Shown here one piece after another: positions 40,796-64,000 of a stretch of 64,000 nucleotides of DNA. Location: assembly GCF_016599145.1 (NCBI RefSeq), contig NZ_JAENKO010000005.1, positions 53,122 through 117,121 of the forward strand, in the 5' to 3' direction. Origin of the DNA: Tomitella cavernea (GTDB lineage: Bacteria; Actinomycetota; Actinomycetes; Mycobacteriales; Mycobacteriaceae). A program made the position numbers and the translations under genes. How positions within the stretch are numbered: the stretch's first letter is position 1; every line of letters starts with the position of its first letter. The notes under the pieces were generated by a model. The model was not told the DNA's origin, made no database searches, and saw nothing but the letters and a program-made list of their open reading frames with translations.

Positions 40796-40972
40796 GGTGC
40801 AGTTGTCACTCGCGCGCGGACGTCCTACGGTCGTTCCGGGCGTCCCGTCCGCGGGTGTGCGCGGGGCTCTATACGGGCGGTCGGCGTGGCGTGATCAGAA
40901 CTTGTCACAGGCCCGGTGTAGTTGTAGTTCGAAGGCCACTGGGGCCTTCGTGTGAGGGGAGGCTTGAAGCGC

Positions 40973-42370
40973 GTGTCGGTGGTCGACGATCGTGATCAGT
41001 CCGGGTTCTCGGACGGACCGCTGCCGCAGGAGCCCCCCACCGAGGACTTCGGCCGCCAGCCCCCGCAGGACATGGTCGCCGAGCAGTCCGTGCTGGGCGG
41101 CATGCTGCTGAGCAAGGACGCGATCGCGGACGTGCTTGAGGTGGTCCGGTCGTCGGACTTCTACCGGCCGGCGCACCAGAGCATCTACGACTCGATCCTG
41201 GACCTCTACGGCCGCGGCGAGCCCGCGGACGCCGTCACCGTGTCCGCGGAGCTGGACCGGCGCGGCGAGCTCAAGCGCATCGGCGGGGCCCCCTACCTGC
41301 ACACGCTGATCTCCACGGTGCCCACGGCGGCGAACGCCGGCTACTACGCCGAGATCGTCGCGGACAAGGCCGTGCTGCGCCGTCTCGTGCAGGCCGGCAC
41401 CCGCATCGTGCAGTACGGGTATGCGGGGGCCGACGGCCAGGACGTGGATGAGGTGGTGGACCGCGCCCAGGCGGAGGTCTTCGAGGTCACCGAGCGGCGC
41501 ACCACCGAGGACTACGTGCCGCTCGAGGAGTTGCTGCAGCCCACGTTGGACGAGATCGACTCCATCGCCACGCGCGGCGGCCTGTCGCTGGGCGTGCCCA
41601 CCGGGTTCATGGAGCTTGACGAGGTCACCAACGGCCTGCACCCGGGGCAGATGATCATCGTGGCGGCCAGGCCCGGCGTGGGGAAATCCACCCTGGGAAT
41701 GGATTTTTTGCGATCATGTTCCGTTAAACACGGAATGTCGAGCGTGATCTTCTCCCTGGAGATGAGCAAGACGGAGATTGTGATGCGTCTTCTTTCCGCC
41801 GAGGCCAAGGTGAAGCTGGGCGACATGCGGGCCGGCAAGATGTCCGACGACGACTGGACTCGTCTGGCACGACGCATGAGCGAGATCTCCGAGGCGCCGT
41901 TGTTCGTCGACGACTCGCCGAACATGACGATGATGGAGATCCGGGCCAAGGCGCGGCGGCTCAAGCAGAAGCACGACCTCAAGCTCATCGTGGTCGACTA
42001 CCTGCAGCTGATGACGTCGGGTAAGAAGGTCGAATCGCGGCAGCAGGAGGTGTCGGACTTCTCGCGCAGCCTCAAACTCCTCGCGAAGGAGCTCGAGGTT
42101 CCGCTGGTGGCGATCTGTCAGCTCAACCGTGGCCCGGAGCAGCGCACCGACAAGAAGCCTATGGTGTCCGACCTGCGCGAATCCGGATCGCTAGAACAGG
42201 ATGCTGACATGGTGATCCTGCTGCACCGCCCCGACGCGTTCGAGCGGGACGACCCGCGCATGGGCGAAGCCGACCTGATCCTGGGCAAGCACCGCAACGG
42301 TCCCACCGCCACGGTCACCGTGGCGCACCAACTGCATTTGTCGCGGTTCGTGGACATGGCGCGAGGGTAG
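40973..42370 (+). CDS. dnaB: Replicative DNA helicase DnaB
   Basis: A 465-residue hexameric replicative helicase with an N-terminal DnaG-interacting domain (PPQDMVAEQSVLGGMLLSKDAI), a linker, and a RecA-like domain with Walker A RPGVGKST, Walker B LIVVDYLQLM and SLEMSK. There is no intein, unlike some mycobacterial DnaB genes. GTG 40973 gives MSVVDD, matching the mycobacterial start, with GAGGGGAGG ten bases upstream. The gene is intact, but its TAG stop overlaps the 5-bp target duplication of a Tn7-like transposon that begins four bases later. Confidence 0.96.
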   Translation: MSVVDDRDQSGFSDGPLPQEPPTEDFGRQPPQDMVAEQSVLGGMLLSKDAIADVLEVVRSSDFYRPAHQSIYDSILDLYGRGEPADAVTVSAELDRRGELKRIGGAPYLHTLISTVPTAANAGYYAEIVADKAVLRRLVQAGTRIVQYGYAGADGQDVDEVVDRAQAEVFEVTERRTTEDYVPLEELLQPTLDEIDSIATRGGLSLGVPTGFMELDEVTNGLHPGQMIIVAARPGVGKSTLGMDFLRSCSVKHGMSSVIFSLEMSKTEIVMRLLSAEAKVKLGDMRAGKMSDDDWTRLARRMSEISEAPLFVDDSPNMTMMEIRAKARRLKQKHDLKLIVVDYLQLMTSGKKVESRQQEVSDFSRSLKLLAKELEVPLVAICQLNRGPEQRTDKKPMVSDLRESGSLEQDADMVILLHRPDAFERDDPRMGEADLILGKHRNGPTATVTVAHQLHLSRFVDMARG

Positions 42371-42374
42371 GGCG
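42370..42374. repeat. Left target-site duplication GGGCG
   Basis: GGGCG immediately outside the left transposon end; its first G is the last base of the dnaB stop codon. An identical GGGCG follows the right end. Five base pairs is the duplication length made by Tn7 and Tn5053-type transposases. Confidence 0.9.
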
Positions 42375-42500
42375 TGCCGCTCGCGCGGGATTCTGGGACT
42401 GAACGCGTTATACCTGGGATTCTGGGACTGGCTCCTGGGGTTTTGCGTTCGGTTGGGACTGGGAGCTCGGAGAAACACCAAGAAGGGAAGGCTATCCTGA
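42375..42500. repeat. Left transposon end with transposase-binding repeats
   Basis: Terminal 25-bp inverted repeat, then further copies of the inner motif: GATTCTGGGACT at 42389 (within the tip) and 42418, TTGGGACT at 42453, with CCTGGGGTTTTG at 42434. The array resembles multiple TnsB sites of Tn7 ends. It closes with an iron-box-like motif starting at 42482. Confidence 0.85.
42482..42500. promoter_or_regulatory. Iron-box-like motif in the left end
   Basis: GAAGGGAAGGCTATCCTGA matches 15 of 19 positions of the DtxR/IdeR consensus TWAGGTWAGSCTWACCTWA. The AAGGCTANCCT core begins 113 bp from the element tip, the same distance as in the neighbouring element. It could be a host-regulator site or simply part of the end. 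Confidence 0.4.
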
Positions 42501-42556
42501 GTGTCCGTTGTGCTTCCGTTCGCGCCTCGGCAGGGGGAAGCGGACGGCGTCCAAGC

Positions 42557-42600
42557 TGACGGCGCCGGCCCTACCGTGGTCGGAGAGACCGGCGTCGTGA
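42557..42600. terminator. Long hairpin at the end of the left cargo operon
   Basis: Complementary arms around CGCCGG/CCGGCG with a few mismatches, ending seven bases before the stop codon of the Hsp90-like gene (minus strand). A related hairpin with the same GCCGGCCCTACCG arm lies inside the second element at 63,350, so it is a conserved component of these left ends. Confidence 0.55.
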
Positions 42601-42607
42601 CGCTTGA

Positions 42608-44434
42608 TCATTCGACGACGGTCGCGAAGCGTGCCCAGTCGGTGAACTCCCAATCCCATCTGCGGCAGACCCGTTCCCTTGGCAGTTCGTCGTTGCTGGG
42701 GTCGACGAGCATGAGCTTGACGTAGCGACCGTCCCCTATCAGCACTGCCAGCAGGTAGCCACCTGGGGATGCGAGCATCAGGGACATCTCGTTGTTCGTC
42801 ATGGCAAACCGCGCATCCGCGTGGTCGACCTTCTTGACCTCGATTCGGACTGGCTCTCCGGCAGGGTCGCTGCCCGAGAGGTCGTAGCCGACATTCTGCC
42901 CGCTGACGTCTTCAAGGCGCCACCCGCGGCCATTGAGGTACTCCATGGTGGCGACTTCGGCAGTGCGCCACCTGGAGACGATGTCTGCCAGAGGCTCCCC
43001 CGTGGGGGGCACATGTGTTTGGCGCGCATCTTCTGTTGGGCGTTGGACGATGACTGGCGGGGAGGGCGGCGGCGACACGGTCGGCCCCCTGTCGACAACG
43101 CGCTGCTCGGCGGCGGTGAGCCTCCTACCGTAGCTACGGGCCATCTCTCCCAGGTGCGTGCCCAGGGTCGCAATCGACTCGTCGGACAACTTCGCGACCA
43201 CAGATTCATCGACGAGCCGCTGGAGCTCGAGGGTGTCGAGCCCCAGGACGGACTTCAGCGCACGTGCATTGCGCTGGTTTTTCTTCGCATACAGCGCTAC
43301 CGGTGCACCTGCTGGGAAGACGTAGGTGACCTCGTCGGTCGTCAGAGGTACCGGCGAGTAGGCGAAGGGCTTTGTCCGGGACTTCATTTCACGTTGGAGC
43401 GCACCGAGCAGAGCGCTGCTGGCTGTCACGTGCGAAGACACCAAGAGGGAGCGGAGATCTTCGCCCTCCAGGATTAACTCCCAGAGCCGCTGGAATAATG
43501 GAGCCTCTGGCGTAGTCAGCTCGTGTGCGATCGCGGAAGCGGCCTCTGCGAGCACCTGCCGAGTGGATTCGTCCTCGACAACGGCGTGTGTTCGTGACGG
43601 ATCGGTTAGCAGATCTCCGGATACGGCCACGGGCAGGCCGGGTTCGTCGTCCAACGGCAACCCGCATGCGAGCCGGCCGCGAAGCCCAATTAGCGACTGG
43701 GCGCGTGCATCGAGCGGGACAGCGATCGTCGCCGACTCGTGCCGCAGTAGACCGAATCTCGCGGCCCCGGACTGGTCGTGGAGTGTCACGCCCCCTTCAT
43801 TGCGATCCACACGGATGCTGATGGGTCGCTCGGAGGTGCTGATGTCGACTCGGTAGACGTGACGCAGGAACAGCAGACTCGTCGGGTCGATGGCGGCCAG
43901 CGGGGCATCAGCGCCGCCGCGGCCGAAGATCGTGAAAGTTGCGCCGTCGATCCAGTCGGTGTTGCGGATATCACACGGGATCCGGATCAGAGGGACTGCA
44001 GAGGGTGACCGTTCGCCGAGCAGCTGGGCAGTGACTTTTCGGTCGAAGGTAAAGGCCACGTCGGAGGACTGGATATCGACACGCGAGGCGATTGCAGCGA
44101 GAGACTTGAACCCGATACCGCGGTATCCAATCGAGTCACCGCCTCGGTGCTTGGTCGAACTTGCACTTCTACACAATGCCTCAGCGTCAACGGCGGGCAG
44201 CGATCGGCCATTGTTGGCCCACGACCATACGCTTCCACCGAGACCAGTGATGGTGATGATGGTGGATCCAGCATCATCGGAGTTCTGCAGCAACTCGTAG
44301 GGAACTCGATTGCGGTAGGTGTCGGCCAGCAGGTCTTCCATTCGGGCGATCTCCCCAAAAAGCCCTGGGGCCTGCCTATGCTCGTCGACCATCTGGGCTT
44401 GCAACGCTGACAGGTGGTGAATCATCTCGATCAT
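42608..44434 (-). CDS. Hsp90-like ATPase with C-terminal DUF3883 domain
   Basis: A 608-residue protein. The N-terminus is a sacsin/Hsp90-type GHKL ATPase: YELLQNSDDAGS carries the Asn and Asp of the nucleotide pocket, and IGYRGIGFKSL is the glycine-rich lid. The last ~120 residues match DUF3883 (NOV), with VRIEVKKVDHADARFAMTNNE, a PD-(D/E)XK-like nuclease-fold signature. Such proteins occur in restriction and phage-defence islands, so an anti-phage role is likely but unproven. Base composition is lower in G+C than the chromosome. Its ATG overlaps the stop of the preceding gene, giving a two-gene unit. Confidence 0.75.
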   Translation of the reverse strand: MIEMIHHLSALQAQMVDEHRQAPGLFGEIARMEDLLADTYRNRVPYELLQNSDDAGSTIITITGLGGSVWSWANNGRSLPAVDAEALCRSASSTKHRGGDSIGYRGIGFKSLAAIASRVDIQSSDVAFTFDRKVTAQLLGERSPSAVPLIRIPCDIRNTDWIDGATFTIFGRGGADAPLAAIDPTSLLFLRHVYRVDISTSERPISIRVDRNEGGVTLHDQSGAARFGLLRHESATIAVPLDARAQSLIGLRGRLACGLPLDDEPGLPVAVSGDLLTDPSRTHAVVEDESTRQVLAEAASAIAHELTTPEAPLFQRLWELILEGEDLRSLLVSSHVTASSALLGALQREMKSRTKPFAYSPVPLTTDEVTYVFPAGAPVALYAKKNQRNARALKSVLGLDTLELQRLVDESVVAKLSDESIATLGTHLGEMARSYGRRLTAAEQRVVDRGPTVSPPPSPPVIVQRPTEDARQTHVPPTGEPLADIVSRWRTAEVATMEYLNGRGWRLEDVSGQNVGYDLSGSDPAGEPVRIEVKKVDHADARFAMTNNEMSLMLASPGGYLLAVLIGDGRYVKLMLVDPSNDELPRERVCRRWDWEFTDWARFATVVE

Positions 44435-45336
44435 TCTTCACCGTCGATAACGCGCACGACGACCCGGTGCGGATCACCTGGCAGGTCAGCGATGTCAATG
44501 ACGCTGCGGCCGATCCACCGAGGCTGGCGACGGGGAGTAGCCCCCTGGGCGTCTACCGGTATGTGGCCATAAAACGTGCAGGGGCGATCATCGAGCAGGA
44601 ACCCGCTGTCGTCCAGGATCTCAAATGTGATCTCGGGGACGTCCACTTCAAATGGTGCGAAATCCTTCACCGTGGATCCGTCATTTTCCCAATCAAGCCG
44701 ACCCAGGTATGTCTTGAGAAGATCCTCCGCGCTACCGAATTCGAAGGAGCCTTCGGTGTGCACGGTCAATGTAGTGCGGTAGTCCCCCTTCGAAAGGAAG
44801 GCATTTGCGACGGCGACCTTCGGATGAGGAGCATCCACGCTGGTCTCGTCCACCACAGTGATCTCGAGAGGTGTAGTCGGACTTGGAAGCATGAGATCTG
44901 AGTTTATGAATAGGTTCCGAACATCGTCGAGATCGTGGGCCGTCAGGCGGAGATCGATTTCTTTCGTGGTAAGCGGGACACGACACGACCAGGTGTCACT
45001 CTTGGCAGATACGCGGATAAGGCCCTTCTTGGCCTTCCTTATCTTCTCAAGTACGATCCATTTATAGTCACTCGAAGGCGCGGGTGTATCGCGTCGATTC
45101 AGTGTAAGGAAGACCTCCGAAGCATAGTCACTGCCATCGCTATCCTTGAACCGATCAGTCCAGTCCTCGGGTAAGAACCGGAAGGAACCGGAGAAAGCAA
45201 CCTGCTGCTCGTAGTCGTTCGCGTAGCCGGGTTTGGTGACGAGCCGCGCTTGAGCGTCTTCTACCTGCCATCCGACTAGCGATAGCGCCAGCTCGTCGAC
45301 GCAAATGTTGATTGCCTCGGATGTCTTGTTTCCCAC
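44431..45336 (-). CDS. Uncharacterised partner of the Hsp90-like ATPase
   Basis: A 301-residue, mainly beta protein with no motif that I recognise, no membrane segment and moderate G+C. I place its start at GTG 45336 because AAAGGAATACC precedes that codon; an upstream GTG at 45366 has no ribosome site. It is coupled by ATGA overlap to the Hsp90-like ATPase gene, so the two products probably act together, perhaps as sensor or adaptor and effector in a defence module. Structure prediction would be the only quick way to place it. Confidence 0.65.
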   Translation of the reverse strand: MGNKTSEAINICVDELALSLVGWQVEDAQARLVTKPGYANDYEQQVAFSGSFRFLPEDWTDRFKDSDGSDYASEVFLTLNRRDTPAPSSDYKWIVLEKIRKAKKGLIRVSAKSDTWSCRVPLTTKEIDLRLTAHDLDDVRNLFINSDLMLPSPTTPLEITVVDETSVDAPHPKVAVANAFLSKGDYRTTLTVHTEGSFEFGSAEDLLKTYLGRLDWENDGSTVKDFAPFEVDVPEITFEILDDSGFLLDDRPCTFYGHIPVDAQGATPRRQPRWIGRSVIDIADLPGDPHRVVVRVIDGEE

Positions 45337-45482
45337 GGTATTCCTTTCGAAACGAATATTTGTCACGTAAAAACCTGAGCGACTCTATCGTTCGATGCGG
45401 ACAGCGCACTCTCTGGCATGTCCGGAGATTCCGATCGTTACGAGCCACTGATACCTGAACCATGCCTGCATTCCGGGACGCA

Positions 45483-48400
45483 TTATGGCTTCGTCTCTTC
45501 GGTGAGGCCATCGACGATCCGCATCGTCTCTACGGCAACGGCGGTCACCCGGCCGATGAGGTCGACGATGTAGCGGGGGGCGTGGTGTTCATCTGCCCAG
45601 TCGTTGGGGTCGTTGACGATCCCCGACGCCTTGTCGGTCTTGACCTGGTAGCGATCCAGGACCCAGCCGAGCGCCGAGCGTGAGCCCAGCAGGTACCGTT
45701 CCGCACCCTTCGGGATGCCGGTGATGGTGACCTTGGGGTTGTAGACGATCGCCGTGTGGTCGTCGACCTTCTTGCCCGTGTCGGGGTCGACGGTCTTGGC
45801 CCATTTCATCTTCTGCACCCGCCACGTCTCCCGGACGGCAGGATCCGCCCCCGCCTTGAGCTGGACGTCGAGCGGGTACGGTTCGACGTTCTCGTAGCCG
45901 ATGTGCAGTGCGGCGAGCCGCCGGCCCGCATCCGCCAACTGGTCGAACCGTGCGCGGGTTTTGGGGGTGGGGATGTGCGGCAACATCTTCTTCAAGTCGA
46001 CGGCGTAGGCGTGCCGGTAGGCGGGGTCGTGCAGGAGCCCGTAGACGTAGTCGAAGATGTCGTCCTTCGACACCGGCCCGCACAGCGCCTCGGAGTAGAG
46101 GTTCTGGATGGCGTCGGTGATGTTGTCGACCCGCCGATACCCCCACTCATCCACCACACCATCACCGGTGGCGAGGTCCAGGTGCCCGTCCGTGGCGGCG
46201 GCTTTCTCGTAGGTCCAGCGTGGGAAGAACTGACCTCCTTGGCCGAAGAAGTTTAGGTCTGGAAGAGAATCCACCATGAGCCCACAAAATGGTGAAGGTG
46301 TCCCCCCGACATTGAGTTGCATTCCGGTGTTGGTGTGGTGGGGGGTCGGGAACATCGACGCCAGCTGGTAGCGGCGTTCGTTGAGGGCGTTGGAGAAGTA
46401 ACTTGCCTGCTTTTGGAACGGTCGGTAGAGCGACGTACGGAACGCATTATCGTCGCGAACGAGAACGTTGTCTCGGGCGAGCTGCTGCTTGAGGCTGGAG
46501 TTCCAACTGACCCGGCCCGTACCCGTGTACTCGGGGTGCGCGCGTAGGAAGGCAGTGACGTCTTGCTCGCTGCGGCGTGCGAGCCCCGCCTGCTGCGCGT
46601 GCGTGTTGAACTCGCGTCGCACCTGCGCGTACTGGTCGAGCATTTCGGTGACGTTCTCTTGGAGGCCGGCGCGTGAGGAGGTGTAGCACCATGCGTCACG
46701 CCCGGTAGCCAATCCACGAGAGTGAGCCGCGAAGACCGTGATCTGTCCGGGCTTGGGCTTCTTGTTGCCGATGGCGGGCCAGGTGGCGAAGGCGTCGTCG
46801 CGCTGGCCGAGCCAATCACCGTGGCTGTTCGGGGTGACGGCGGTCCAGCTGAGGTCCGTCAAGGTGGCTTTGTCGACGCGGTCGAGCTTGTCGTCGCGGG
46901 ACAGGTAGTCGCCGATGTCGTGGTAGAACACCTCACACGGGCCCGTGTGCGCGGGGTTCTTGACGCCGAGGAAGATCGCGACGGTGTTGCGGCTGCCTGC
47001 GCCGAATACCTTGCCGCCCTCTTTGCGGGAGAGCTCGCCGGCGGTGCGCTGGTTGCCGCGCAGGTTGTAGACGTAGATGCGGGAGTATTCGTCGGCGAGG
47101 GACAGGCGGATGCCGTCGGCGGTGTTGCCGTCGACCCAGCCGCCATTGGACACGAAGGCGACGACGCCGGCGTCGCCGATCCGGTCGGTCGCCCACCGGA
47201 ACGCCCGCAGATACGAGTCGTACAGGCTGTTCTTGTTCGTCCCGGTCGACCGCTTCGCGTAGGTGTCACCGATCCGATTGTCGAGGGTGGGGTAGGCGAT
47301 GTTCGCGTTGAGGTCGTTGGCGCTGTTCTGCCCCACCGAGTAGGGCGGGTTGCCGACGATGATGTTGATCGGCACCCCCAGTTGCCGCAGAATCCGTTCG
47401 TTGTTCTGCGGGAACATCACGGTATCGAGGCTGTCGCCGTCCTCGGTGATCTGGAACGTATCGGCCAGCACGATCCCCTCGAACGGCCGATACCCGCCGC
47501 CGGTGCCGGCGTCGGGGAGGGCGTGGAAGGTGGTCTCGATGTTCACCGCGGCAATGTAGTAGGCCAGCAACATGATCTCGTTCGCATGCAACTCGTCCGC
47601 ATACTTGCGGGCCAGATCATCCCGGTCGATGAGCCCGGACTGCAGCAGGCGGGTCAGGAACGTGCCGGTGCCGGTGAACGGGTCGAGAACATGCACACCC
47701 GCATCGGTGATGCCCCGGCCGAACGCGTCCCGGGATGCCTGGTCGGCGGCCCGCAGGATGAAGTCCACAATCTGCACCGGCGTGTACACGATGCCCAGCG
47801 CCTCGGCCTGACGCGCGAAGCCGAGTTTGAAGAACTTCTCATACAGCTCCGCGATCACCTGCTGTTTACCCTCGGCCGTGGTCACCTCCGAGGCCCGTAC
47901 CCGCACGGACGCGTAGAACCCCTCGAGCCGCGCCGTCTCGGCCTCCAGCCCCGCGGCGCCGAGCAGGTCGACCATCGCCTGCATCGTGATCGAGACGGGG
48001 TTGTGGGTAGCGAACTCGTGCCCGGCGAACAGGGCATCGAACACCGGCTTGGTGATCAGATGCTGCGCAAGCATGCTGACCGCATCGTCATCGCCGATGG
48101 AATCGTTGAGGTTGTCCCGCAGGCCCTGCACGAACGCGGCGAACCCCTCCGCCACCTCGGTATCGGCCTGGCCCAGGACGGCGCGGATGCGGGAGATTAG
48201 CGCATTGGCGATGTCGGCGACATCGCCTGCCCAGTCCTCCCAGTAGGTGCGGGTGCCGACCTTGGTGACGATCCGCGCGTAGATCGCCTCCTGCCACTCC
48301 GACAGCGAGAACAACGCCATCTGCTTGGCGAGTTCCCGGTCCGCGGCGGCCGGATCCACCGCATACGGGTCGCCCCCGTCTCCGGGCTCGATGGTCTCGG

Positions 48401-50465: not shown

Positions 50466-50578
50466 CGCGCCCCACCTCCCGCATCATTGTTGCCCGCGTG
50501 TCGCAGAGCAGCCGACTATCTGGTCATCATGTCAGGCAGCTCGGACGAATACCCCGGTGCTCACCACCGTGCCCGTAC

Positions 50579-55796: not shown

Positions 55797-55963
55797 CGCC
55801 ACCACAGCCTCGACGAGAGCCGGATCGGACGGTCTAGATCGGTATCGCAGTGGCACTGGGCGAGTGTGCGCAGCACGCGCGCCCGGCCTGTGGGGCCGCC
55901 GCCATATGCGTCGGCGGCGGCGCCGAGCGTGGTCGTGGTCCGCGCCAGGCTGTCGGTCTCGGT

Positions 55964-56650
55964 CTACCACTCCTCGCGTGTGACAGGGCATTTCCAGCGC
56001 AGTGCCCCGAGAAGCCGCAGGTTGACGGCGTGCTGGCGGGGCATACTGCCGCGGAGCGTGTAGTCGATGCCGTGTGCGCCGAGCGTGTCGGGCATCAGGT
56101 CGGCCAGCATTGCGCGGGCGTAGTCGTTGAGCAGCGACTCGGAGCGCACACTCGCGATCTCGATGCCGCTGTCAGTGGTGATCAGTAGATCAGGGATCTG
56201 AAGGATCTTCTTGGTGCCGATCGGCCAGACCAGGATGCACGGCTGGCTTTGGTAGCCGGTCACGTCGGCGCGCCGGTCGAGCGCGATCATCCACAGCTCC
56301 TCGAGCTTGGATTCGGCCCACACGACGGCGGGTCTGCCGCTGCTGCGGGTGGTGTGCAGCATGAGGTTCGATCTGGCCTGCATGTGCGAACCGAGCCGCC
56401 GCACTGGAAGCGCCCCGCCGCGGGCCACGCCGGCGAGTGCGTCGAGCCTGATGATGCGGGTATCGGAACCGTCCCAGATCACCGCCGTGCAGCCGGCGAC
56501 GGCGCGGCGACGCACCTCTGGCTCCTGCAACGCGGCGAGTGCCTCGTCATTGGACAGCGTGTTCGACAGATGGGTGCGGATCTGGCTAGGGGTGCGGCGG
56601 ACTCCTTTGCGGGCGCTGACAGAGGTGCCGGTGATGAAATCCGACCTCAC
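55964..56650 (-). CDS. tnsA: TnsA-like endonuclease with atypical active site
   Basis: A 228-residue protein with the TnsA N-terminal nuclease pattern: the Glu region WAESKLEELW (Glu113/117), the QP turn, and the Asp in IPDLLI (Asp154). The usual (E/Q)-x-K lysine motif is replaced by SVR (167-169) in EIASVRSE. TnsA cuts the 5' ends of the transposon to give cut-and-paste movement. If the substitution disables cutting, the element would move by cointegrate formation. The GTG at 56650 has GGAGG upstream. First of the four core transposition genes. Confidence 0.75.
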   Translation of the reverse strand: MRSDFITGTSVSARKGVRRTPSQIRTHLSNTLSNDEALAALQEPEVRRRAVAGCTAVIWDGSDTRIIRLDALAGVARGGALPVRRLGSHMQARSNLMLHTTRSSGRPAVVWAESKLEELWMIALDRRADVTGYQSQPCILVWPIGTKKILQIPDLLITTDSGIEIASVRSESLLNDYARAMLADLMPDTLGAHGIDYTLRGSMPRQHAVNLRLLGALRWKCPVTREEW

Positions 56651-56809
56651 CACGCCACCTCCGCCCGGGGAGTCGGGCGCCGCAAAACCGTAGGGCGGGC
56701 AGTGCGGGGGTTGACAGCAGCCCGTAGGCAGGCTGAAATAGACACAGCGAACCTCCAAGAGGTGCGAGAAGAGATATGAGCAGCGGCGCCAACCGCTGTG
56801 AATACTGTG

Positions 56810-56846
56810 GAAGAGGCCGGGTGGCAGCCCGGTCTCTTCGCTTTTT
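56810..56846 (+). terminator. Intrinsic terminator on the plus strand upstream of tnsA
   Basis: GAAGAG and CCGGG arms pair with CCCGG and CTCTTC around TGGCAG, followed by GCTTTTT. The orientation ends a plus-strand transcript coming from the tnsA 5' region, opposite to the tns operon. It could end an antisense or small RNA, or stop outward read-through. Confidence 0.7.
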
Positions 56847-56850
56847 GCGC

Positions 56851-57072
56851 TCATGGCCCCGCACGGGACCGGCCGGCTTCCGGCTCGCTGTCACACAACG
56901 CGTCGATCGCTTCGGCGGTGATGGAGCTGAGGGTGCGTTCGGTCTGACCGGCGCGGGTGTACAACCGCTGGGCGGTTTCCGCGGGGAGCCGAACCTCGAT
57001 TCGGACGACCTGGCCCGCGGCGACAGTGCGCAATACGCGACGACCGAAATGCGTCGGCGGAAGATGGATCAT
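56851..57072 (-). CDS. Ribbon-helix-helix (CopG-like) regulator
   Basis: A 73-residue protein with a ribbon-helix-helix pattern: strand VRIEVRLP, helix AETAQRLYTRAG, then the second helix SSITAEAIDAL. It lies 200 bp upstream of tnsA on the same strand, and a perfect 24-bp palindrome is found 71-94 bp upstream of its own start. RHH proteins typically autorepress through such sites. It may control transposition, or be an orphan antitoxin; no toxin gene is adjacent. Confidence 0.7.
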   Translation of the reverse strand: MIHLPPTHFGRRVLRTVAAGQVVRIEVRLPAETAQRLYTRAGQTERTLSSITAEAIDALCDSEPEAGRSRAGP

Positions 57073-57426
57073 CGAGTTGCGAACCTCTCACGAGAAGACC
57101 AGATTCCTGTGAAATTATCGGTTGCAACTCCGATGTGACGCACACTACCGGCATGTGCCGGTAGTGGACAAGGGCTCGTCCGAAACGGTGCTGCGGCAAC
57201 ATGATCAACCTCGGTTGGCGTTGACAGTTCTCATGCGAGAGCAGATCCGGGGCCGCCGGGGCCGGGGCTGTGCGGTGCGCTCGAACCCCAAGCGCCGACA
57301 GCGCTCGACCCTGGAGGGGGTGCCGCCGGCCGAAGACATGCCGGAACTTGTCGTAGCCGCGTGGTCCCATTCCCGGTAGGAGGCGGACGCCGTCGGCCGC
57401 CCCGGTGAACGGAGAGGACACACATC
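57073..57426. other. Divergent control region of the tns side
   Basis: 354 bp between the RHH gene and a divergent unknown gene. It contains the 24-bp palindrome at 57143, a TTGACA -35-like hexamer near 57,220 on the plus strand, and a ribosome site for the gene at 57427. No other gene is evident. Confidence 0.55.
57143..57166. promoter_or_regulatory. Perfect 24-bp palindrome, candidate RHH operator
   Basis: CACTACCGGCA and its complement separated by two bases. Its position between the RHH gene and a divergent gene makes it a strong candidate operator for the RHH protein and a switch for the tns operon. Confidence 0.65.
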
Positions 57427-57801
57427 GTGACCATCACAGCACCGACCCCGCCCACAGACGACGACATCACCCGCATCGTCAGCGACTACGTGGCCGAGCG
57501 CGCATCTATCGGCGTGAAGTTCGCGCAGGCGCACGCCACCGTCACCACCACCGAAGGGGAGGTGACCGTCGTCTTCGATCCGGCCCTCGCCGGCATGACC
57601 GACGAGCTGTTCGCCGAGCTCCGCCCCTTCGACAACCTGGCGGCCTGCGCCGGCAACCCGCTCGCCGGCAACGACGACGTCGGCGCCTGGCGCCGCACCC
57701 GGCTCATCCGCGTCGACACCCTCTTACGCGGCGGCAACGACCTCGGATCGCTGACCGTCCACGAGCTGCACCAGCGGGCCACCGTCGTGCCGAAGCCGTA
57801 G
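57427..57801 (+). CDS. Uncharacterised small cargo protein
   Basis: A 124-residue acidic soluble protein with no recognised domain. TTEGEVTVVFDPALAGMTDELFAEL suggests a small alpha/beta fold. A GTG start follows GGAGAGGA. It is the first of two plus-strand genes divergent from the tns operon and may be cotranscribed with the next gene 134 bp on. Confidence 0.6.
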   Translation: MTITAPTPPTDDDITRIVSDYVAERASIGVKFAQAHATVTTTEGEVTVVFDPALAGMTDELFAELRPFDNLAACAGNPLAGNDDVGAWRRTRLIRVDTLLRGGNDLGSLTVHELHQRATVVPKP

Positions 57802-57934
57802 CGCACGCCGGCCACGCAGCCAGTCGCCGCACCGGAGCATGAGAGAGGAGCACCCCGCACGCACCGAGCCGGAGGCGCCGCCCCCCACGGAGCGAGCGCT
57901 GGACCTGGCAGTACTTGACGCGAAGGACGATGCA

Positions 57935-59086
57935 ATGACCATGACAACGGCCAGTGATCCGCTCGGGCCTGGCACCGAAATCCAGATAGCGCTCCTCCTC
58001 CCCGCCCATGAACACCTGGCGCCCGACGACGCGCTCGTGGCGCTGCATCGGGCCGGACTCGACGCGGCGAGCGCCCTGTTCATCGATACACCGACGACCG
58101 ATATGAGCCGGTGGCCGGCCGCCGACGCGGCGTTCCGCGAGGCCATCGCCGCCGCCCACCCGCGAGCAACGACGACGCCGCTCGTCTGGGCCAGGGTGCG
58201 CACGGCACCTGAATACCCGTCGGTATCCCAGATCGAGATGGAACGGTACGGCAGCCAGCGAGAGCCCGCGCCCCGCGATCCCTCGTGGCCACCCGACTTC
58301 ACCGGGGTTCCCGTCGCGGCGCTGCGCGACCGCAGGGAGGCGGCGCCCGGCAGCCGGATTCTGCAACACATCCCGCCCGGCGACGGCTGGCACCGTGTCG
58401 CCTGGACACGCTTCGACTACCCGAACATCAACGCCGTCGACCTGCTGTGCGAATGCTCGATACAACAGCTCCACCACCCCGACGGACACACCATGGGGTT
58501 CGCCGGTAACGACACATGCGCCTACCGATCCGCGGCCGCCTATCTGCGGGCTCTGTCACGCCAGCGGGAATTTCCGCACACCGCGCCCACCGCATTGCGG
58601 GACATGCTCGACCTCGCGCTCGCCGGCGAATGGCTCGGCCAACCGGGCGGCAGCGCGTTGTGGGGATCGAACCTTTACCTGCAGACCGTATCGATACTGC
58701 TCGACACCGACATGCCCTGGGACCTCGCGAACGAGGCCGTCCAGCAACGCCTGATCGACATCAACGGAGCCGTGCTCGGGATGCCCCGTCCCGCACGTAC
58801 CGCGCCGGCCGGGCCGATCATGGACTGGGACAGCAACGCGGCGACCGACGGCGACTGGCTGATCTGGTGGTCCCGCCTCGACCGCCGCTACCAGGTGGAA
58901 GTCATCCGCGACCCCGCCCACAGCAGCACCGGGCAGCTAACCGTTTACGACCACGAGGCCGACGACACGCCACTGCACAGCGAGAAGGTCGTGCTGTCGT
59001 ACGGGGCGGTGTTCGGCCCCGACGCCGGCGACGTGACGGAGTGGAAGCAGATCGCCGCCGCAGTAGTCGACGCGCGCGACGGGTAG
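57935..59086 (+). CDS. Uncharacterised 383-residue cargo protein
   Basis: A soluble protein of 383 residues with high G+C and chromosome-like codon use. It is rich in Trp and acidic residues (WLIWWSRLDRRYQVEVI; WHRVAWTRFDYPNINAVDLL) and has no motif that I can name. ATG 57935 is preceded by GAAGGACG. An upstream extension to 57839 is possible but has no ribosome site. It converges on the ATPase gene that follows. Confidence 0.6.
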   Translation: MTMTTASDPLGPGTEIQIALLLPAHEHLAPDDALVALHRAGLDAASALFIDTPTTDMSRWPAADAAFREAIAAAHPRATTTPLVWARVRTAPEYPSVSQIEMERYGSQREPAPRDPSWPPDFTGVPVAALRDRREAAPGSRILQHIPPGDGWHRVAWTRFDYPNINAVDLLCECSIQQLHHPDGHTMGFAGNDTCAYRSAAAYLRALSRQREFPHTAPTALRDMLDLALAGEWLGQPGGSALWGSNLYLQTVSILLDTDMPWDLANEAVQQRLIDINGAVLGMPRPARTAPAGPIMDWDSNAATDGDWLIWWSRLDRRYQVEVIRDPAHSSTGQLTVYDHEADDTPLHSEKVVLSYGAVFGPDAGDVTEWKQIAAAVVDARDG

Positions 59087-59186
59087 CGCCCCCCGGCAGC
59101 GGGCCCCAGCGCCAGGTGTCGTAGATCAAGTGCGCTTGGCTGGCGGACCCTGTCATGGGTCGGCGATCGGGGCCCGAGGTAGCTCA

Positions 59187-60149
59187 TCAGCGTGTGTCGC
59201 GCAGGCACTCGCGTAGGTACGGGAGCGCGAACGCGACGCGCCGTTGGCCGGCGGGCTCGATCAGATCCGCCTCTGTCAGCCACAGTGCGCACGCTTCCGC
59301 ATCGCCGGGGGTGGAACCTGTGCGTGCCGAAATATCGCAGAGGAAGCTGGGGTGGTCGTCGGCCGCCATCGCTTCGAGGAATCCGAGCTCAGGCGGGGCA
59401 AGGCGCCGCAGTGAGGGCTCGTGGATCATGCGGCCCACGAGACGAGCTGCCTCGACGCTGGCGCTTGTGACATCGGCGCTGGTGATCGTGGTACTACCGG
59501 GGCGGCGGCTCCATGCGAGGTGTCCGACGAGCTGGATCAGGAACGGATAGCCGCGCGCGGCGGCTGCTGCTTTGGCGAGAGCATCATCGCTGATGGTCCG
59601 TCCCGCACGCTCAACCGGTACGCGAATGGCAACCGCTGCCTCGTCATGGTCGATCATGCCCAGCTCGACCCGGTGAGCATCGCGAAGGAGCGGCAGCGCA
59701 CGCTGTCCGGCGAGACTTGTTGCGGCCGGCGGTAGCCCAGCGACGACCACGTCGACGCGGGGGCCGCCGCGCGCAGCGGCCTTGCATGTGGTGAGCACCG
59801 TGCGCAGCTCGTCGATGTCACCGCCATGGACCTCGTCGATTGTGATCAGCACGTCGATCGTTCTGCCGCTGGACGGTGGGTGCAGGCGGTCGGCGGTGAT
59901 CCGGGCCGGCAGGCCACGGGTAGCGGTCTCAGCCACGACAAGTCGGCCACGCGCCCTTGAGATGGCCTCAAGCTTGTTCAGCAGCACCGTCTTGCCCACA
60001 CCGCTGTGTCCGGTGACAAGGGAAACGGAAAGTGAGCTGCCAGTGGGATCGTCGAGACTGGTGGCGAACGCCTGGATCGTGCCGCCGCGCCCGGCCAGCA
60101 GCGGTGGCGACACGCCGAACGAGGGGCGAAATGGGCTGTGGGTGGTCAC
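59187..60149 (-). CDS. AAA+/ORC-like ATPase, cargo
   Basis: A 320-residue P-loop ATPase. Walker A is GHSGVGKT (about 47-54), Walker B LITIDEVH (about 100), and a C-terminal winged-helix-like segment contains ALWLTEADLIEPAGQRRVAFALPYLRECL. It looks like the Cdc6/ORC-like or archaeal-type ATPases common on actinobacterial mobile elements, and differs from the TnsC-like protein at 53 kb. The GTG start at 60149 is fixed by an AGGGAGGAG ribosome site. Role unknown: defence, replication or transposition accessory. Confidence 0.72.
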   Translation of the reverse strand: MTTHSPFRPSFGVSPPLLAGRGGTIQAFATSLDDPTGSSLSVSLVTGHSGVGKTVLLNKLEAISRARGRLVVAETATRGLPARITADRLHPPSSGRTIDVLITIDEVHGGDIDELRTVLTTCKAAARGGPRVDVVVAGLPPAATSLAGQRALPLLRDAHRVELGMIDHDEAAVAIRVPVERAGRTISDDALAKAAAAARGYPFLIQLVGHLAWSRRPGSTTITSADVTSASVEAARLVGRMIHEPSLRRLAPPELGFLEAMAADDHPSFLCDISARTGSTPGDAEACALWLTEADLIEPAGQRRVAFALPYLRECLRDTR

Positions 60150-60588
60150 TGACTCCTCCCTGCTTCTTCGGCATCGGACACCGGTGCGAGCGCCACAGCC
60201 AGTATCAAGAGCGATGCGGAGATGCGGGGGCGCTTCGCGTCGGCGGGCCTCTGTATCGCCGCGACCAACCGCGGCCAGTGCTGACCCGTTCACAGCGCAT
60301 CCTTGACCAACCTGGAGCCAGACGGAACGACTGCACGGTAATGTGACTCGAGCGGTCAGCCGACCGTGCAGCAGATCATGTGCCAATCCACAATATTATG
60401 CACGACCCACGCGTTGGCGGGGCTTGCGACGCGGAATACTCCTTCTATGATTTCGTCTATTCTAGTAATTCTGGTACCGCATGGCCCAACACTTTTCCAC
60501 AACAGGGGCGCTGGCACTCTGGAAATTCCGCGGTTGCTCGCTGTGTCAGTTATCTGGCAAATCAGATACAAGTAGAGAGGGTGATCTA
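60150..60588. other. Intergenic region, A+T-rich towards the HEPN gene
   Basis: About 440 bp with no credible gene. G+C falls sharply from ~60,370 onwards, marking the boundary of the foreign HEPN gene. Promoters for both flanking divergent genes should lie here. Confidence 0.5.
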
Positions 60589-62586
60589 TTGACGTCGGCA
60601 GGTCTATTTCAACAACGAGAAAGATGGCTTGAGGAACTGGGCCAATACGTCAAGAACGGGGAACGAATAATCTGTGAAGCCGGATATGTACCACTTTCTG
60701 CAATTGCAGAAGAATTTGTCGATGCGGCGAATGACCCTAGGCCGCATGACGGTCAACAGAAAAACGACTGGCAATCACGCGTACGGGACATCATGGATAC
60801 GGTTGAGTGGTTAGGGCCAGAGTTCACCAGCATTGTTTACACAACTGTGAGCGACCTGCACTCTTCCGTCACCAATGGACTTCTGGTGCATAAGAAGGGC
60901 AAATTGAACCTAGATGATTCGAAACGACCTATAGTGGCGCAAAATGCCTCATCAGTCGTCAAGTTACTCGATAGTGACGATGTTCTCATCGCCGCCTGGC
61001 ATGATCTGATTGCGGCTTGCAAAAGTTCTGATCATGCGATATTCCCGGTTGAGCGTGTTAAATTCCTCCGCGATAATGTGGTTGCGCTATGCAGACGCCG
61101 CCGACAGGACCCTGGCCATTTCGGTCCGCTTCAGATGGCATACAGCGTTCTCCTAGGACATGACCACGCCGTGCGCTATGCGCAATCGAGAATTGGCGAC
61201 GAGATATCGCCGTCAGCACCTGACCCGGACGCAGCGTCCTCCTTGACGCCGGACGCGCTCGAACGACTATCAGAACGGTGCATTGTCGCATCTTCATTGA
61301 CCGAAAATTGCGTAGTTTGGTTCCGAATTTCCCCGGCCTTCGTGAAGGAGGCCATATCTATAAGTCATGGCGCAGTAACGTTCTATGCAGCGCAGAATCT
61401 CGCTGCGGTGCTCACTAATCAGAATGTCGCACGAGAATTGTACGATGTTGTGCCAGAAGAACTCCTAACCGACGACGTTCGGAATCTCCAGCTTTCCCGT
61501 AATGGGTCAGATGAGAATCGGGGGTTCGAGTCCACGCCCACTCTCGTGTATGCCCGAGTTATAGTTGAGTCGGTCGAAAGGCACTTGGCAACATCTAATG
61601 CTCGCGTGCTTCTTGACGCAGTCTTGAAGGTTATTGGTACACCTGCAGGATTATGGCACGTGCTTCGCGGCTCGCTCCTTTTTGTAGATGGAGACTATCG
61701 CCAAACTAACTATTTTGACTGGGGGCCGAAAAGTGAGTTTGTCAACCATGAATTGGACTACGTAAATGATGATTTCACCACTAGACTGCGAGAATTTGAA
61801 GATAGGGACCTGGTGATCACGGCAGATGCGGCTACCGAATTATCTCCAATACTTCAACTTCAGGACGAGCTGGAAAATGCTTCAGATGCAAGTCCTGATC
61901 TGGCGGTACGAGCAGCTGTACGTGCGATCGAGCACTGCACGACGCGTACCGAGCTGGGGAGAATCTCTTGGAATGAGTTTGTGAGCAAATACTTATTGGA
62001 CATATATACTGTCGAGCAGTTCGCGTTTCGTACTGTGAGGGGCGTATTCATGGCAGCAGTTGCCAACATTCCGGACCACACCCCAGGCGCGCCGAGAGTT
62101 CCGGAACTTGAGGTGATCGCAGAAGATATACGGAAGAATAGATGGAGCGGGCCGATCATTCGAGCAAGAACAGTAGCCCATACAGCCGAGCTTCGGCGAC
62201 TCTACCGAGATCATTGGCTATGGAGGAGCCTTGCAGAGTTGGACGACACTCTCGCTTCTGCCAGTGCGCTGTCAATGGCGTTCGAAAAGGAGCAGGAGCG
62301 GGTGGACGCGTGCACTGCTCGTTTGCGCCGGACGCGTAATGCGGCTATCCACGGTGGCCCTATCTCCATAGCGGCATGCGAGACTGTCGCGAATTTTGCG
62401 CGGCAAATCGCGGGGTTGGCGCTCGCCAATGTGATCGAAGCCATAGTAGATGAATCGGAAGTAGAGGTTTACACCTCAGATCTGCGAACTCAGTACCGGA
62501 TGCGAGTGGAGAACCTTGTCCGGTCAGGGAACTTGGAGAATCTCTTCGAGTTTCCGGCACCTACGTCACCTCAGCCCGCATCGTGA
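60589..62586 (+). CDS. HEPN-domain protein, low G+C cargo
   Basis: A protein of about 665 residues whose C-terminal part contains RRTRNAAIHGG, the R-N-x3-H catalytic motif of HEPN ribonucleases, in a helical region matching Apea-like HEPN. The N-terminal ~500 residues have no recognised domain. G+C is far below its neighbours, a clear sign of recent acquisition from a different donor. HEPN RNases commonly act in toxin-antitoxin, abortive-infection and other defence systems. I prefer the TTG at 60589 because GAGAGGGTGA precedes it; an ATG at 60481 would add 36 residues but has no ribosome site. Confidence 0.75.
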   Translation: MTSAGLFQQRERWLEELGQYVKNGERIICEAGYVPLSAIAEEFVDAANDPRPHDGQQKNDWQSRVRDIMDTVEWLGPEFTSIVYTTVSDLHSSVTNGLLVHKKGKLNLDDSKRPIVAQNASSVVKLLDSDDVLIAAWHDLIAACKSSDHAIFPVERVKFLRDNVVALCRRRRQDPGHFGPLQMAYSVLLGHDHAVRYAQSRIGDEISPSAPDPDAASSLTPDALERLSERCIVASSLTENCVVWFRISPAFVKEAISISHGAVTFYAAQNLAAVLTNQNVARELYDVVPEELLTDDVRNLQLSRNGSDENRGFESTPTLVYARVIVESVERHLATSNARVLLDAVLKVIGTPAGLWHVLRGSLLFVDGDYRQTNYFDWGPKSEFVNHELDYVNDDFTTRLREFEDRDLVITADAATELSPILQLQDELENASDASPDLAVRAAVRAIEHCTTRTELGRISWNEFVSKYLLDIYTVEQFAFRTVRGVFMAAVANIPDHTPGAPRVPELEVIAEDIRKNRWSGPIIRARTVAHTAELRRLYRDHWLWRSLAELDDTLASASALSMAFEKEQERVDACTARLRRTRNAAIHGGPISIAACETVANFARQIAGLALANVIEAIVDESEVEVYTSDLRTQYRMRVENLVRSGNLENLFEFPAPTSPQPAS

Positions 62587-62904
62587 TTCGCTAGCGGTGG
62601 GCGACCGCAGTACCGGCGATGATCTGGATGGCCGCGCGGGGTGCGGCACTGCACCGGGAGACCCTCGCGGTGGTGCAGGACCGCGACTTCGCGGGCACCG
62701 ACGAGGATGAGGAACTCTCCCATCATTGTCCACACTGCACTCCGACCCCTTCCAGGCTTTGTGTGTCATCCAGGCTCTGCTGTGGCTGCGTGACGCACTG
62801 TGGACCGCATATGCAGTCGGCAGGAGTGGCGGAGTGGCGCTGGAGCCAAGTCCCTATTGGTGGTGCCTCGCGTAGCTCGACCGGCGAGGTATGCAGGCAT
62901 AAGT
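62587..62904. other. Gene-free stretch before the right end
   Basis: About 320 bp. A short plus-strand frame at 62619-62906 has chromosome-like composition but no ribosome site or recognisable domain; it may be a gene remnant. Nothing else is supported. Confidence 0.4.
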
Positions 62905-62918
62905 AAGGCTAGCCTTGC
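62900..62918. promoter_or_regulatory. Iron-box-like motif in the right end
   Basis: A symmetric AAGGCTAGCCTT core at 62905-62916. The 19-bp window beginning one base earlier than this feature matches about 15 of 19 positions of the DtxR/IdeR consensus. It is the right-end counterpart of the left-end motifs. Confidence 0.35.
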
Positions 62919-63004
62919 GTAGTGAATCCCAACGAGGCTTTGTCGAGTCGTCCCAAGACAGACAAAACCCCAGGTCTCTGTCCCAGAATCAGGCGCCAGC
63001 GGCA
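62900..63004. repeat. Right transposon end with transposase-binding repeats
   Basis: The terminal 25 bp (62980-63004) are inverted relative to the left tip. Internal repeats in reverse orientation include CAAAACCCCAGG at 62963 and GTCCCAA at 62949. The CCTGGGGTTTTG element is 30 bp from this tip but 59 bp from the left tip, so the left end carries about one extra repeat, the usual asymmetry of Tn7-like ends. Confidence 0.85.
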
Positions 63005-63009
63005 GGGCG
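63005..63009. repeat. Right target-site duplication GGGCG, shared with next element
   Basis: GGGCG directly after the terminal CA of the first element and directly before the TG of a second left end. It is identical to the copy at the dnaB stop codon and serves both elements. Confidence 0.9.
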
Positions 63010-63116
63010 TGCCGCGGGCGCGCAATTCTGAGACAGAACACGCCATGAGTGAGATTTTGAGACAAACACCTGGGGTTTTGTTGCCCGTTGAGACAGACGC
63101 CTACTCGTTTGATCAG

Positions 63117-63135
63117 GAAGGGAAGGCTAACCTAA
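63117..63135. promoter_or_regulatory. Near-consensus iron box in second left end
   Basis: GAAGGGAAGGCTAACCTAA matches 17 of 19 positions of the DtxR/IdeR consensus. Its core sits 113 bp from the element tip, as in the first element. Confidence 0.5.
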
Positions 63136-63252
63136 TCGGCTGAGGTCACCAGAAAGGGCTCCGACGGCGGTTTCGGCGATATAGTTTCGGACGAGGGTTT
63201 CGGCGCATCAGCGTCTGCAAGGATGATGCGACCCGAACAGTGCACCTGCCGA

Positions 63253-63276
63253 CACCGGAAACGATCGTTTCCGGTG
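63253..63276. promoter_or_regulatory. Perfect 24-bp palindrome
   Basis: CACCGGAAACGA followed directly by its complement, without a spacer. It resembles a dimeric repressor operator. No adjacent regulator gene is visible within the window. Confidence 0.6.
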
Positions 63277-63349
63277 ACCGGGTCCATCGAACTCATGTTC
63301 TGTTATTGTCCATGCCCCGGTCGAGAGAAGCGGCCGGGGTCGAAACAGA

Positions 63350-63995: not shown

Positions 63996-64000
63996 AGGAC

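What the first reader, a model, noticed from the sequence alone, without database searches (positions are those of the whole stretch)
42370..63009. A complete Tn7-like transposon with exact ends and a 5-bp target duplication
Both tips were located to the base: TG...CA ends, 22 of 25 terminal positions identical in inverted orientation, and GGGCG directly repeated outside both. Inside are TnsA-, TnsB-, TnsC- and TnsD/TniQ-like genes in the expected order with overlapping start/stop codons. The D-35-E transposase spacing and the 5-bp duplication agree with the biochemistry known for Tn7. Tn7-like elements are best studied in Proteobacteria and cyanobacteria; a full one in a mycolic-acid actinobacterium, with 20.6 kb of cargo, is worth description.
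Basis: partly seen in the sequence, partly recalled or inferred. Interest (0 to 1): 0.93.

Follow-up and report, generated by a model that had tools for sequence, protein, structure and literature searches.

The report
Tn7-like transposons stacked at dnaB
A 20.6-kb Tn7-like jumping element sits just behind the stop codon of the replication gene dnaB in an actinobacterium likely related to Rhodococcus, directly against the end of a second such element, and ends of three families are found at the same spot in other species, so dnaB is likely a shared safe landing site that the element's own targeting protein is predicted to recognise.

Summary
The tips and duplication are confirmed to the base: TG...CA ends (22/25 identical), GGGCG at 42370-42374 and 63005-63009, element 42375-63004 (20,630 bp), with tnsA-like, tnsB, tnsC and tniQ genes. 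Three corrections. (1) The right flank is not plain chromosome: a second, related left end starts at 63010; its probable far end, also followed by GGGCG, lies on another contig of the same genome. (2) tnsA carries an in-frame TAG, so 'complete' is doubtful; the tnsA/tnsB overlap is an ORF-calling artefact. (3) Tn7-like elements in Actinobacteria are already known as a clade. The new part is the site. Related elements of Rhodococcus tukisamuensis and Gordonia begin 9 and 8 nt after the last conserved dnaB codon (window: 7). In 28 of 51 family genomes with a TniQ hit, the hit lies within 25 kb downstream of dnaB, in none within 27 kb upstream. Three families of ends (31 of 58 dnaB 3' ends examined) use the site. 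R. tukisamuensis also shows stacking, of two lineages. I infer that TniQ, with a predicted LysR-type DNA-binding C-terminus, reads the end of dnaB as TnsD reads glmS. The papers I opened do not name dnaB as such a site. Activity is untested.

The parts
40952..42370 (+). dnaB, replicative helicase (472 aa), intact; its 3' end is the proposed attachment site
   Evidence: TIGR00665 DnaB E 1e-159
42370..42374 (.). left copy of the 5-bp target duplication GGGCG (first G is the last base of the dnaB stop codon)
42375..42500 (+). dnaB-proximal (left) end: tip TGCCGC, TnsB-site-like cores at 42393, 42422, 42453, box AAGGCTATCC at 42488
42608..44434 (-). cargo: sacsin-type ATPase with NO VEIN C-terminal domain, TmtA-like (likely defence)
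   Evidence: Pfam, NCBIfam, PADLOC
44431..45366 (-). cargo: 311-aa protein, no family found
45483..50465 (-). cargo: type ISP / IIG single-chain restriction-modification enzyme, 1660 aa
   Evidence: Type_ISP_C 2.5e-87, PADLOC REase_MTase_IIG 2364 bits
50579..52759 (-). tniQ/tnsD-like target selector, 726 aa, TniQ domain plus predicted C-terminal LysR-type winged helix
   Evidence: PF06527 4.7e-18
52759..53823 (-). tnsC-like AAA+ ATPase, 354 aa, Walker A GPAMVGKT
   Evidence: AAA_22 8.2e-5, below cut-off
53778..55796 (-). tnsB, DDE transposase; likely start at residue 66 of the 737-aa ORF that opens at 55991
55964..56854 (-). tnsA-like gene, 296 aa, ended by an in-frame TAG; about 57 further residues homologous to relatives' TnsA follow in the same frame
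   Evidence: NF033179 1.2e-13, below cut-off
56851..57072 (-). 73-aa ribbon-helix-helix-like small protein, possible regulator
   Evidence: RHH_5 E 0.017, weak
57405..57842 (+). cargo: 145-aa ORF, no family
57839..59086 (+). cargo: 415-aa protein; a 54-56% homologue lies beside another Tn7-like operon downstream of dnaB in G007
59187..60386 (-). cargo: AAA_16-like ATPase, 399 aa
   Evidence: AAA_16 2.5e-6, below cut-off
60481..62586 (+). cargo: 701-aa protein, no family
62900..63004 (-). dnaB-distal (right) end: tip ...GCGGCA, TnsB-site-like cores at inner positions 19 and 48, box AAGGCTAGCCTT at 62905
63005..63009 (.). right copy of the target duplication GGGCG
63010..63400 (+). left end of a second, related element (20/25 tip identity to the first; cores at 19, 48, 79; box at 63123; shared subterminal stretch to about 63399)
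63630..63998 (-). membrane-protein-like ORF inside the second element (my reading of its sequence), cut by the contig end

Best explanation
This is a 20,630-bp Tn7-like transposon inserted directly behind dnaB, next to the end of a second related element, and its TniQ/TnsD-type protein likely chose that site by binding the conserved 3' end of dnaB. Shown: both tips, the GGGCG duplication, the tnsA-like/tnsB/tnsC/tniQ operon, the neighbouring second left end, and the same position in relatives. Inferred: TniQ (TniQ domain plus predicted LysR-type winged helix) binds dnaB coding DNA, recruits the TnsC ATPase, and the TnsA/TnsB transposase joins the ends a few bases beyond, leaving DnaB intact. 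A site that stays intact can be used again, so newcomers land between dnaB and the earlier occupant and stacks form; GGGCG before element 1, between the two elements, and after the probable far end of element 2 fits two successive insertions. The cargo is probably anti-phage defence (type ISP restriction-modification, a sacsin-type ATPase). This copy may be disabled or altered, because tnsA is cut short.
For: Ends and duplication; control 0 of 1000. Genes. Second left end. Probable far end on contig C41: cores at 19/49/73, then GGGCG, then about 36 bp on DNA 92% identical to G003. Same lineage at dnaB: R. tukisamuensis (20,358 bp, CGAGT on both sides) and Gordonia sp. ABSL11-1. Lineage-i cores sit at 18-20, 48 and 77-80 in 6 of 6 left ends examined (G004 and G249 were not put in). 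28 of 51 TniQ-positive family genomes have the hit within 25 kb downstream of dnaB, 0 within 27 kb upstream. 31 of 58 dnaB 3' ends, 22 of those 28 among them, carry one of three tip patterns, against 128, 7 and 4 of 40,000 random windows. R. tukisamuensis: behind the element lies a lineage-ii end which, before that insertion, would have been +9 from the stop, as in G179.
Against: No transposition or binding was tested. The Aldersonia member (TniQ 42% identical) is not at dnaB, so similarity of TniQ does not fix the target. 23 of 51 TniQ-positive genomes show no hit near dnaB: 4 on the same contig but far away, 19 on other contigs. 27 of 58 dnaB ends match no tip pattern, 6 of the 28 near cases among them. 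The TnsA and TnsC names rest on weak or below-cut-off matches. The right tip of the Gordonia element was not found, and the R. tukisamuensis pair alone is matched by 3 of 1000 controls. The link between contig C70 and contig C41 is inferred, and that far tip matches the second left tip in only 20 of 40 positions. The three tip patterns were drawn after seeing sequences.
Confidence: 0.85

Rival explanations
1. The dnaB 3' end is a passive hotspot: elements land broadly and survive there because it is harmless or near an open replication region, and TniQ does not read dnaB.
For: Different lineages with different ends share the site, and some relatives sit elsewhere.
Against: Offsets from the last conserved codon are narrow within lineage i (7-9 nt in 6 of 7, the seventh 23). 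tniQ faces dnaB in 7 of the 28 near genomes, those with the most window-like TniQ, and runs with dnaB in the other 21, of which G081 has one of each. 0 hits lie within 27 kb upstream of dnaB. Passive survival predicts scatter.
Confidence: 0.1
2. The locus is a dead fossil stack: the elements arrived by Tn7-like transposition long ago and none can move now.
For: In-frame TAG in tnsA; only one TnsB match in the whole genome; the probable far tip of element 2 reads GT where others read TG.
Against: tnsB, tnsC and tniQ are open; the two tips of element 1 match 22/25 and the duplication is perfect, which suggests a fairly recent insertion. TnsA catalytic mutants are reported to keep replicative transposition (PMC8649781, passage).
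Confidence: 0.35
3. It is a genomic island placed by a site-specific recombinase at the dnaB end, with tns genes as passengers.
For: Sits at the 3' end of a conserved gene, as many islands do.
Against: No recombinase family was found among the ten larger ORFs scanned; the boundaries are TG/CA inverted repeats with a 5-bp duplication and TnsB-site arrays, in independent genera.
Confidence: 0.02

Closest known systems
Tn7 (Escherichia coli), TnsABCD pathway
   Same: TnsB-type DDE transposase (profile match to Tn7 TnsB, E 1.2e-3), TnsA-like and TnsC-like partners, TniQ/TnsD, arrays of end sites, 5-bp duplication, insertion just beyond a conserved gene that stays intact
   Different: Site is dnaB, not glmS; TniQ ends in a predicted LysR-type winged helix; the tniQ-side end, not the tnsA-side end, adjoins the target gene (Tn7 orientation is recalled); TnsB only distantly similar
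Actinobacteria-dominated Tn7-like clade of the TnsB tree in PMC8649781
   Same: Host phylum, core genes, arrays of end sites, defence genes among the cargo
   Different: That main text names no dnaB site (0 occurrences); I could not place the window TnsB in that tree
Tn7706 (Rhodococcus erythropolis NI86/21, PMC12915292)
   Same: tnsA, tnsB, tniB, tniQ; 19,377 bp; related host
   Different: Multicopy at several sites, including plasmids (passages); a TnsB on a plasmid of Rhodococcus sp. YL-1, one of the hosts named there, is 28.8% identical to the window's
Tn7-like element of Rhodococcus tukisamuensis NBRC 100609 (locus L029)
   Same: TnsA 43, TnsB 51, TnsC 57, TniQ 44% identical; at dnaB; 5-bp duplication; cores at 19, 48, 79
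   Different: TniQ ORF 862 aa; none of the window's cargo found in it; its neighbour is a relic end of another lineage

Membership tests
Tn7-like transposon | TnsB-type DDE transposase | tested here: met
   D336/D426/E462 invariant in 9 rows; profile matches Tn6677 TnsB 1e-6 and Tn7 TnsB 1.2e-3
Tn7-like transposon | TnsA endonuclease | tested here: inconclusive
   NF033179 TnsA_like_Actin 51 bits against a cut-off of 110; no sequence match to solved TnsA; relative's model lists 1f1z at rank 2, E 0.18, mean pLDDT 56; gene cut by TAG
Tn7-like transposon | TnsC AAA+ ATPase between tnsB and tniQ | tested here: met
   Walker A (invariant G110, K111, T112) and Walker B (VVD/VID, D197) conserved in 5 sequences; AAA_22 below cut-off; no solved TnsC matched
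Tn7-like transposon | TniQ/TnsD target selector | tested here: met
   PF06527 66.6 bits, cut-off 27; profile meets a solved TniQ at 2e-7; model matches TniQ 8bd5_Q, probability 1.00 but E 3e-3
Tn7-like transposon | Several transposase sites inside each end, TG...CA tips | tested here: met
   binding itself untested
Tn7-like transposon | 5-bp target duplication | tested here: met
   GGGCG; CGAGT in R. tukisamuensis and TCTTG in G179 (3 and 1 of 1000 controls reach those scores)
Tn7-like transposon | Directed insertion at a conserved attachment site | tested here: met
   dnaB 3' end in several genera; direction by TniQ itself was not tested
Tn7-like transposon | Transposition dependent on tns genes | not testable with these tools
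   needs an assay
CRISPR-associated transposon (CAST) | Cas effector genes within the element | tested here: not met
   10 larger ORFs were scanned with Pfam and 9 with PADLOC: no CAST effector subunits; Cas3/Csf4/DinG hits fall only on the helicase part of the restriction enzyme, TniQ models on TniQ. CRISPR arrays were not searched for as such

The most novel reading that the evidence does not exclude
Probability: 0.6. Interest if true: 0.68.

Novelty: new variant of a known kind. Interest (0 to 1): 0.58.

Why it matters
The review I opened names only a handful of Tn7-like attachment sites in the passages I saw (glmS, tRNA genes, parE; PMC11406308), and the Actinobacteria-dominated clade had no experimentally characterised member as of 2021 (PMC8649781). 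A defined element with exact ends, a small operon and a predicted attachment site in a highly conserved gene gives a testable route to site-specific insertion in Rhodococcus-type hosts, and a natural system for asking how one site serves several TniQ lineages and how stacking escapes target immunity.

Tried and rejected
Rejected: the right flank as plain chromosome (second left end). A far end of element 2 by pattern with up to 3 mismatches: not found; found only through the flank shared with G003. G003 as a clean empty site: no tip follows dnaB, but 1.8 kb of DNA not shared with C41 lies before the shared flank, so no true empty site is shown; G001 has no tip and its fetched flank shares nothing with C41.

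Aldersonia as a dnaB case: rejected; no tip follows its dnaB and its element's second tip was not found. Gordonia right end: not found. Outside the close relatives: of the 24 named loci, only L029 and L030 show dnaB; the other 22 show none in the stretch held, some of which are short. The order-wide TniQ search gave 5 of 397 at E 1e-8, all in the same family; the genomes listed there are all of that family, so it says little about other families.

TnsC against solved structures: nothing. TnsA fold: weak. Literature searches for dnaB as a Tn7-like site gave no such report; one search listed 2 papers and one, none of which I opened. Of the 4, 13 and 10 papers listed I opened five different ones (PMC8649781, PMC12915292, PMC10293859, PMC11406308, PMC12231136); the rest I saw only as listings.
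Full report
WHAT IS THERE. The window is positions 53122-117121 of contig C70 of its genome, and the contig ends where the window ends. Behind dnaB (40952-42370) an element runs from 42375 to 63004 (20,630 bp), flanked by GGGCG at 42370-42374 and 63005-63009. The first G of the left copy is the last base of the dnaB stop codon, so the DnaB reading frame is unchanged. The tips read TG...CA and match 22/25 when inverted; no other place scanned (44400 to 63994) reaches 18/25. Requiring TG/CA and an exact 5-bp duplication, the pair scores 24/30, and 0 of 1000 random starts reach that.

GENES. On the minus strand lie tnsA-like, tnsB, tnsC and tniQ. TnsB has D336/D426/E462 invariant in 9 rows, one a truncated copy of itself, and its profile matches TnsB of Tn6677 (1e-6) and Tn7 (1.2e-3) among solved structures. 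TniQ has the Pfam TniQ domain at 66.6 bits, and its family profile meets a solved TniQ at 2e-7. Its C-terminal ~75 residues look like a LysR-type winged helix: Pfam HTH_1 passes its cut-off in one of 6 homologues scanned (P0011) and is below it in P0015 and P0019; the family profile meets CysB at 9e-4; the model (mean pLDDT 68) lists TniQ structures first and LysR DNA-binding domains next, with E-values of 3e-3 and above. In the window's own protein Pfam lists only TniQ. TnsC has Walker motifs but no match to a solved TnsC. TnsA rests on NCBIfam TnsA_like_Actin (1.2e-13, below its cut-off), on gene order and on a weak fold match.

tnsA is truncated. The 296-aa frame ends at TAG 55964-55966, and the same frame then continues for about 57 residues that resemble the C-termini of relatives' TnsA, ending near the tnsB start used by homologues. 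Whether this is a real mutation or a sequencing error is open.

A SECOND ELEMENT. At 63010, directly after the right GGGCG, another left end begins: TGCCGCGGGCGCGCAATTCTGAGAC, 20/25 identical to the first tip, 72% identical over a 94-nt stretch around it, with cores at the same positions and further subterminal similarity to 63399. The contig ends 991 bp after its first base. A flank search with the neighbour species G003 led to contig C41 of the same genome, where a right end (cores at 19, 49 and 73 from its tip) is followed by GGGCG and, about 36 bp on, by DNA 92% identical to G003 over 1.2 kb. It was the top of the scan of the first 7 kb of C41, with 20 of 40 tip positions and 5 of 5 duplication bases (score 30, next 27); the spacing of the cores is the stronger sign. 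I read this as dnaB-GGGCG-element 1-GGGCG-element 2-GGGCG-chromosome. The joining of C70 to C41 is inferred; C41 opens with what looks to me like the end of an IS transposase gene, which would explain the break (my reading of the sequence, not searched). The far tip reads GT instead of TG, and the genome has no second TnsB match, so element 2 may be a relic.

THE SITE. One search returned 24 named loci, three of them close relatives (Aldersonia, R. tukisamuensis, Gordonia). Rhodococcus tukisamuensis and Gordonia sp. ABSL11-1 carry the same operon with its tniQ side against dnaB. The R. tukisamuensis element is 20,358 bp with CGAGT on both sides (18/30 tip match; 3 of 1000 random starts do as well). 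Aldersonia kunmingensis carries the operon elsewhere. The window TniQ hits 51 of 401 family genomes (at most two candidates were scored per genome, so this is a lower bound). dnaB was located in all 51 (G022 taken as Aldersonia because contig length and coordinates agree). In 28 of 51 the TniQ hit lies within 25 kb downstream of dnaB on the same contig, in 0 within 27 kb upstream, in 4 on the same contig but far, and in 19 on other contigs. Chance would give about 0.25 of 51 (25 kb of roughly 5 Mb, my arithmetic). The 28 fall in 8 genera (nine genomes in one, seven in another), so they are not 28 independent cases; several hits are fragments.

THREE END FAMILIES. I looked at the first bases after dnaB in 58 loci: the 51 genomes, four congeners, Gordonia, and G025 and G031, which had distant TnsB hits. 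This is not a random sample. 31 match one of three tip patterns: (i) TGCCGC-like with a core, 7 loci; (ii) TGTAG(G/A)(G/T)TC, 18; (iii) TGTCGAGATGCA, 6; 27 match none. Of the 28 near genomes 22 match and 6 do not (G007, G163, G189, G219, G246, G363). In 40,000 random 40-nt windows the patterns hit 128, 7 and 4 times (the pool includes some stretches beside dnaB). The patterns were set after seeing part of the data. Offsets from the last conserved dnaB codon are 7, 7, 7, 8, 8, 9 and 23 for (i), 10-17 in 15 of 18 for (ii) (others 21, 24, 30), and 5-13 for (iii). In one genus near-identical ends sit at offsets 10, 11, 11, 12, 13 and 17 in six species, which suggests separate insertions, though small indels could also do it. 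In the 7 near genomes whose TniQ, often a fragment, is most like the window's (39% identity or more), tniQ faces dnaB; in the other 21 it runs with dnaB, G081 having one of each. One of those seven, G271, has a pattern-ii tip. TnsB proteins of six other dnaB-site elements are 25-27% identical to the window's. In a TniQ tree of 24 rows (17 near dnaB, 5 not, 2 unclear) the near-dnaB label needs 3 changes (12 of 500 shuffles as low): the site is spread over deep branches, with some changes of target.

STACKING ELSEWHERE. Behind the R. tukisamuensis element, after its CGAGT, the sequence reads TGT then TGTAGGTTCCGG, a lineage-ii-type end; the lineage-ii proteins I tried match only the lineage-i genes of that 56.6-kb stretch, and no partner tip was found. 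Counting the duplication once, that end would have stood 9 nt after the stop, exactly where the lineage-ii end of G179 stands. So lineage ii probably came first and lineage i landed between it and dnaB. G302 has two right-end-like places with the same GTTCG duplication at 30.4 and 37.0 kb (17/30 each; no control run for it). This is the pattern expected if the recognised sequence lies inside dnaB and survives each insertion.

ENDS. In lineage i the left ends have cores at 18-20, 48 and 77-80 in 6 of 6 examined (the window's two, R. tukisamuensis, Gordonia, G148, G100; G004 and G249 were not put in), and the distal ends at 19 and 48-49, with a third at 72-74 in 3 of 4 (the core pattern is loose and has a few extra hits). 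A box AAGGCTNNCC lies about 90-115 nt inside both ends of element 1 and the left end of element 2 and occurs nowhere else in the 64-kb window; it is also in the Aldersonia and R. tukisamuensis distal ends, but not in 5 of the 10 ends listed there.

CARGO. A 1660-aa type ISP/IIG restriction-modification enzyme, a sacsin-type ATPase with a NO VEIN domain (TmtA-like in PADLOC), an AAA ATPase and proteins of no known family. The first 323 residues of the restriction enzyme are 81% identical to a gene about 3 kb beyond the tniQ match of the dnaB-site element in G183, and the 415-aa protein is 54-56% identical to one next to tniQ of the element at dnaB in G007, which suggests exchange between elements that share the site.

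LITERATURE. Tn7-like elements in Actinobacteria are known (PMC8649781: passages and one section; PMC12915292: passages; PMC12231136, passages, tells of tnsB and tnsC beside CRISPR genes in Streptomycetaceae). The survey of target selectors (PMC10293859: outline, section 10 and passages), the review PMC11406308 (passages) and PMC8649781 have 0 occurrences of dnaB in the main text. Full-text searches listed no paper whose title or abstract start reports dnaB as a Tn7-like site. The library holds only open-licence papers and supplements could not be read, so the site may be listed in a table I did not see.

VERDICT. Observation confirmed; interpretation right in kind but incomplete. The element is a Tn7-like transposon, probably of a known broad clade; its site, the stacking and the shared use by three lineages are what appears new.

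Noticed in passing
window 42488, 62905, 63123: Box AAGGCTNNCC (AAGGCTAGCCTT at the right end), resembling a DtxR/IdeR-type palindrome (recalled), occurs in the 64-kb window only inside the three transposon ends.
   Followed up: partly
L013-L016 (G003, G004); L030 and L054-L058 (Gordonia): dnaB is interrupted by about 1.2 kb in two congeners, and in Gordonia by two in-frame inserts within one 1108-aa ORF, most likely inteins; the 472-aa window dnaB shows none.
   Followed up: no
L020 (G004) just after the dnaB stop: A lone left end almost identical to the window's, similar for about 40 nt only: a likely relic of the same element in a congener.
   Followed up: partly
G022 contig C45, near 14887: Aldersonia carries the same operon away from dnaB; its other tip was not found, so its target is unknown.
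   Followed up: partly
L169 (G271) and L135 (G370), first 60 nt after dnaB: A lineage-i-like tip followed within about 30 nt by a lineage-ii tip, as if two elements had been nested and decayed.
   Followed up: no
window 42507-42609 and 63297-63399: A 103-nt stretch 71% alike in both elements, with a GC-rich inverted repeat by eye, possibly a terminator shielding cargo from dnaB.
   Followed up: no
window 12152-12209: msiK cis-regulatory RNA (RF01747), 48.4 bits.
   Followed up: no
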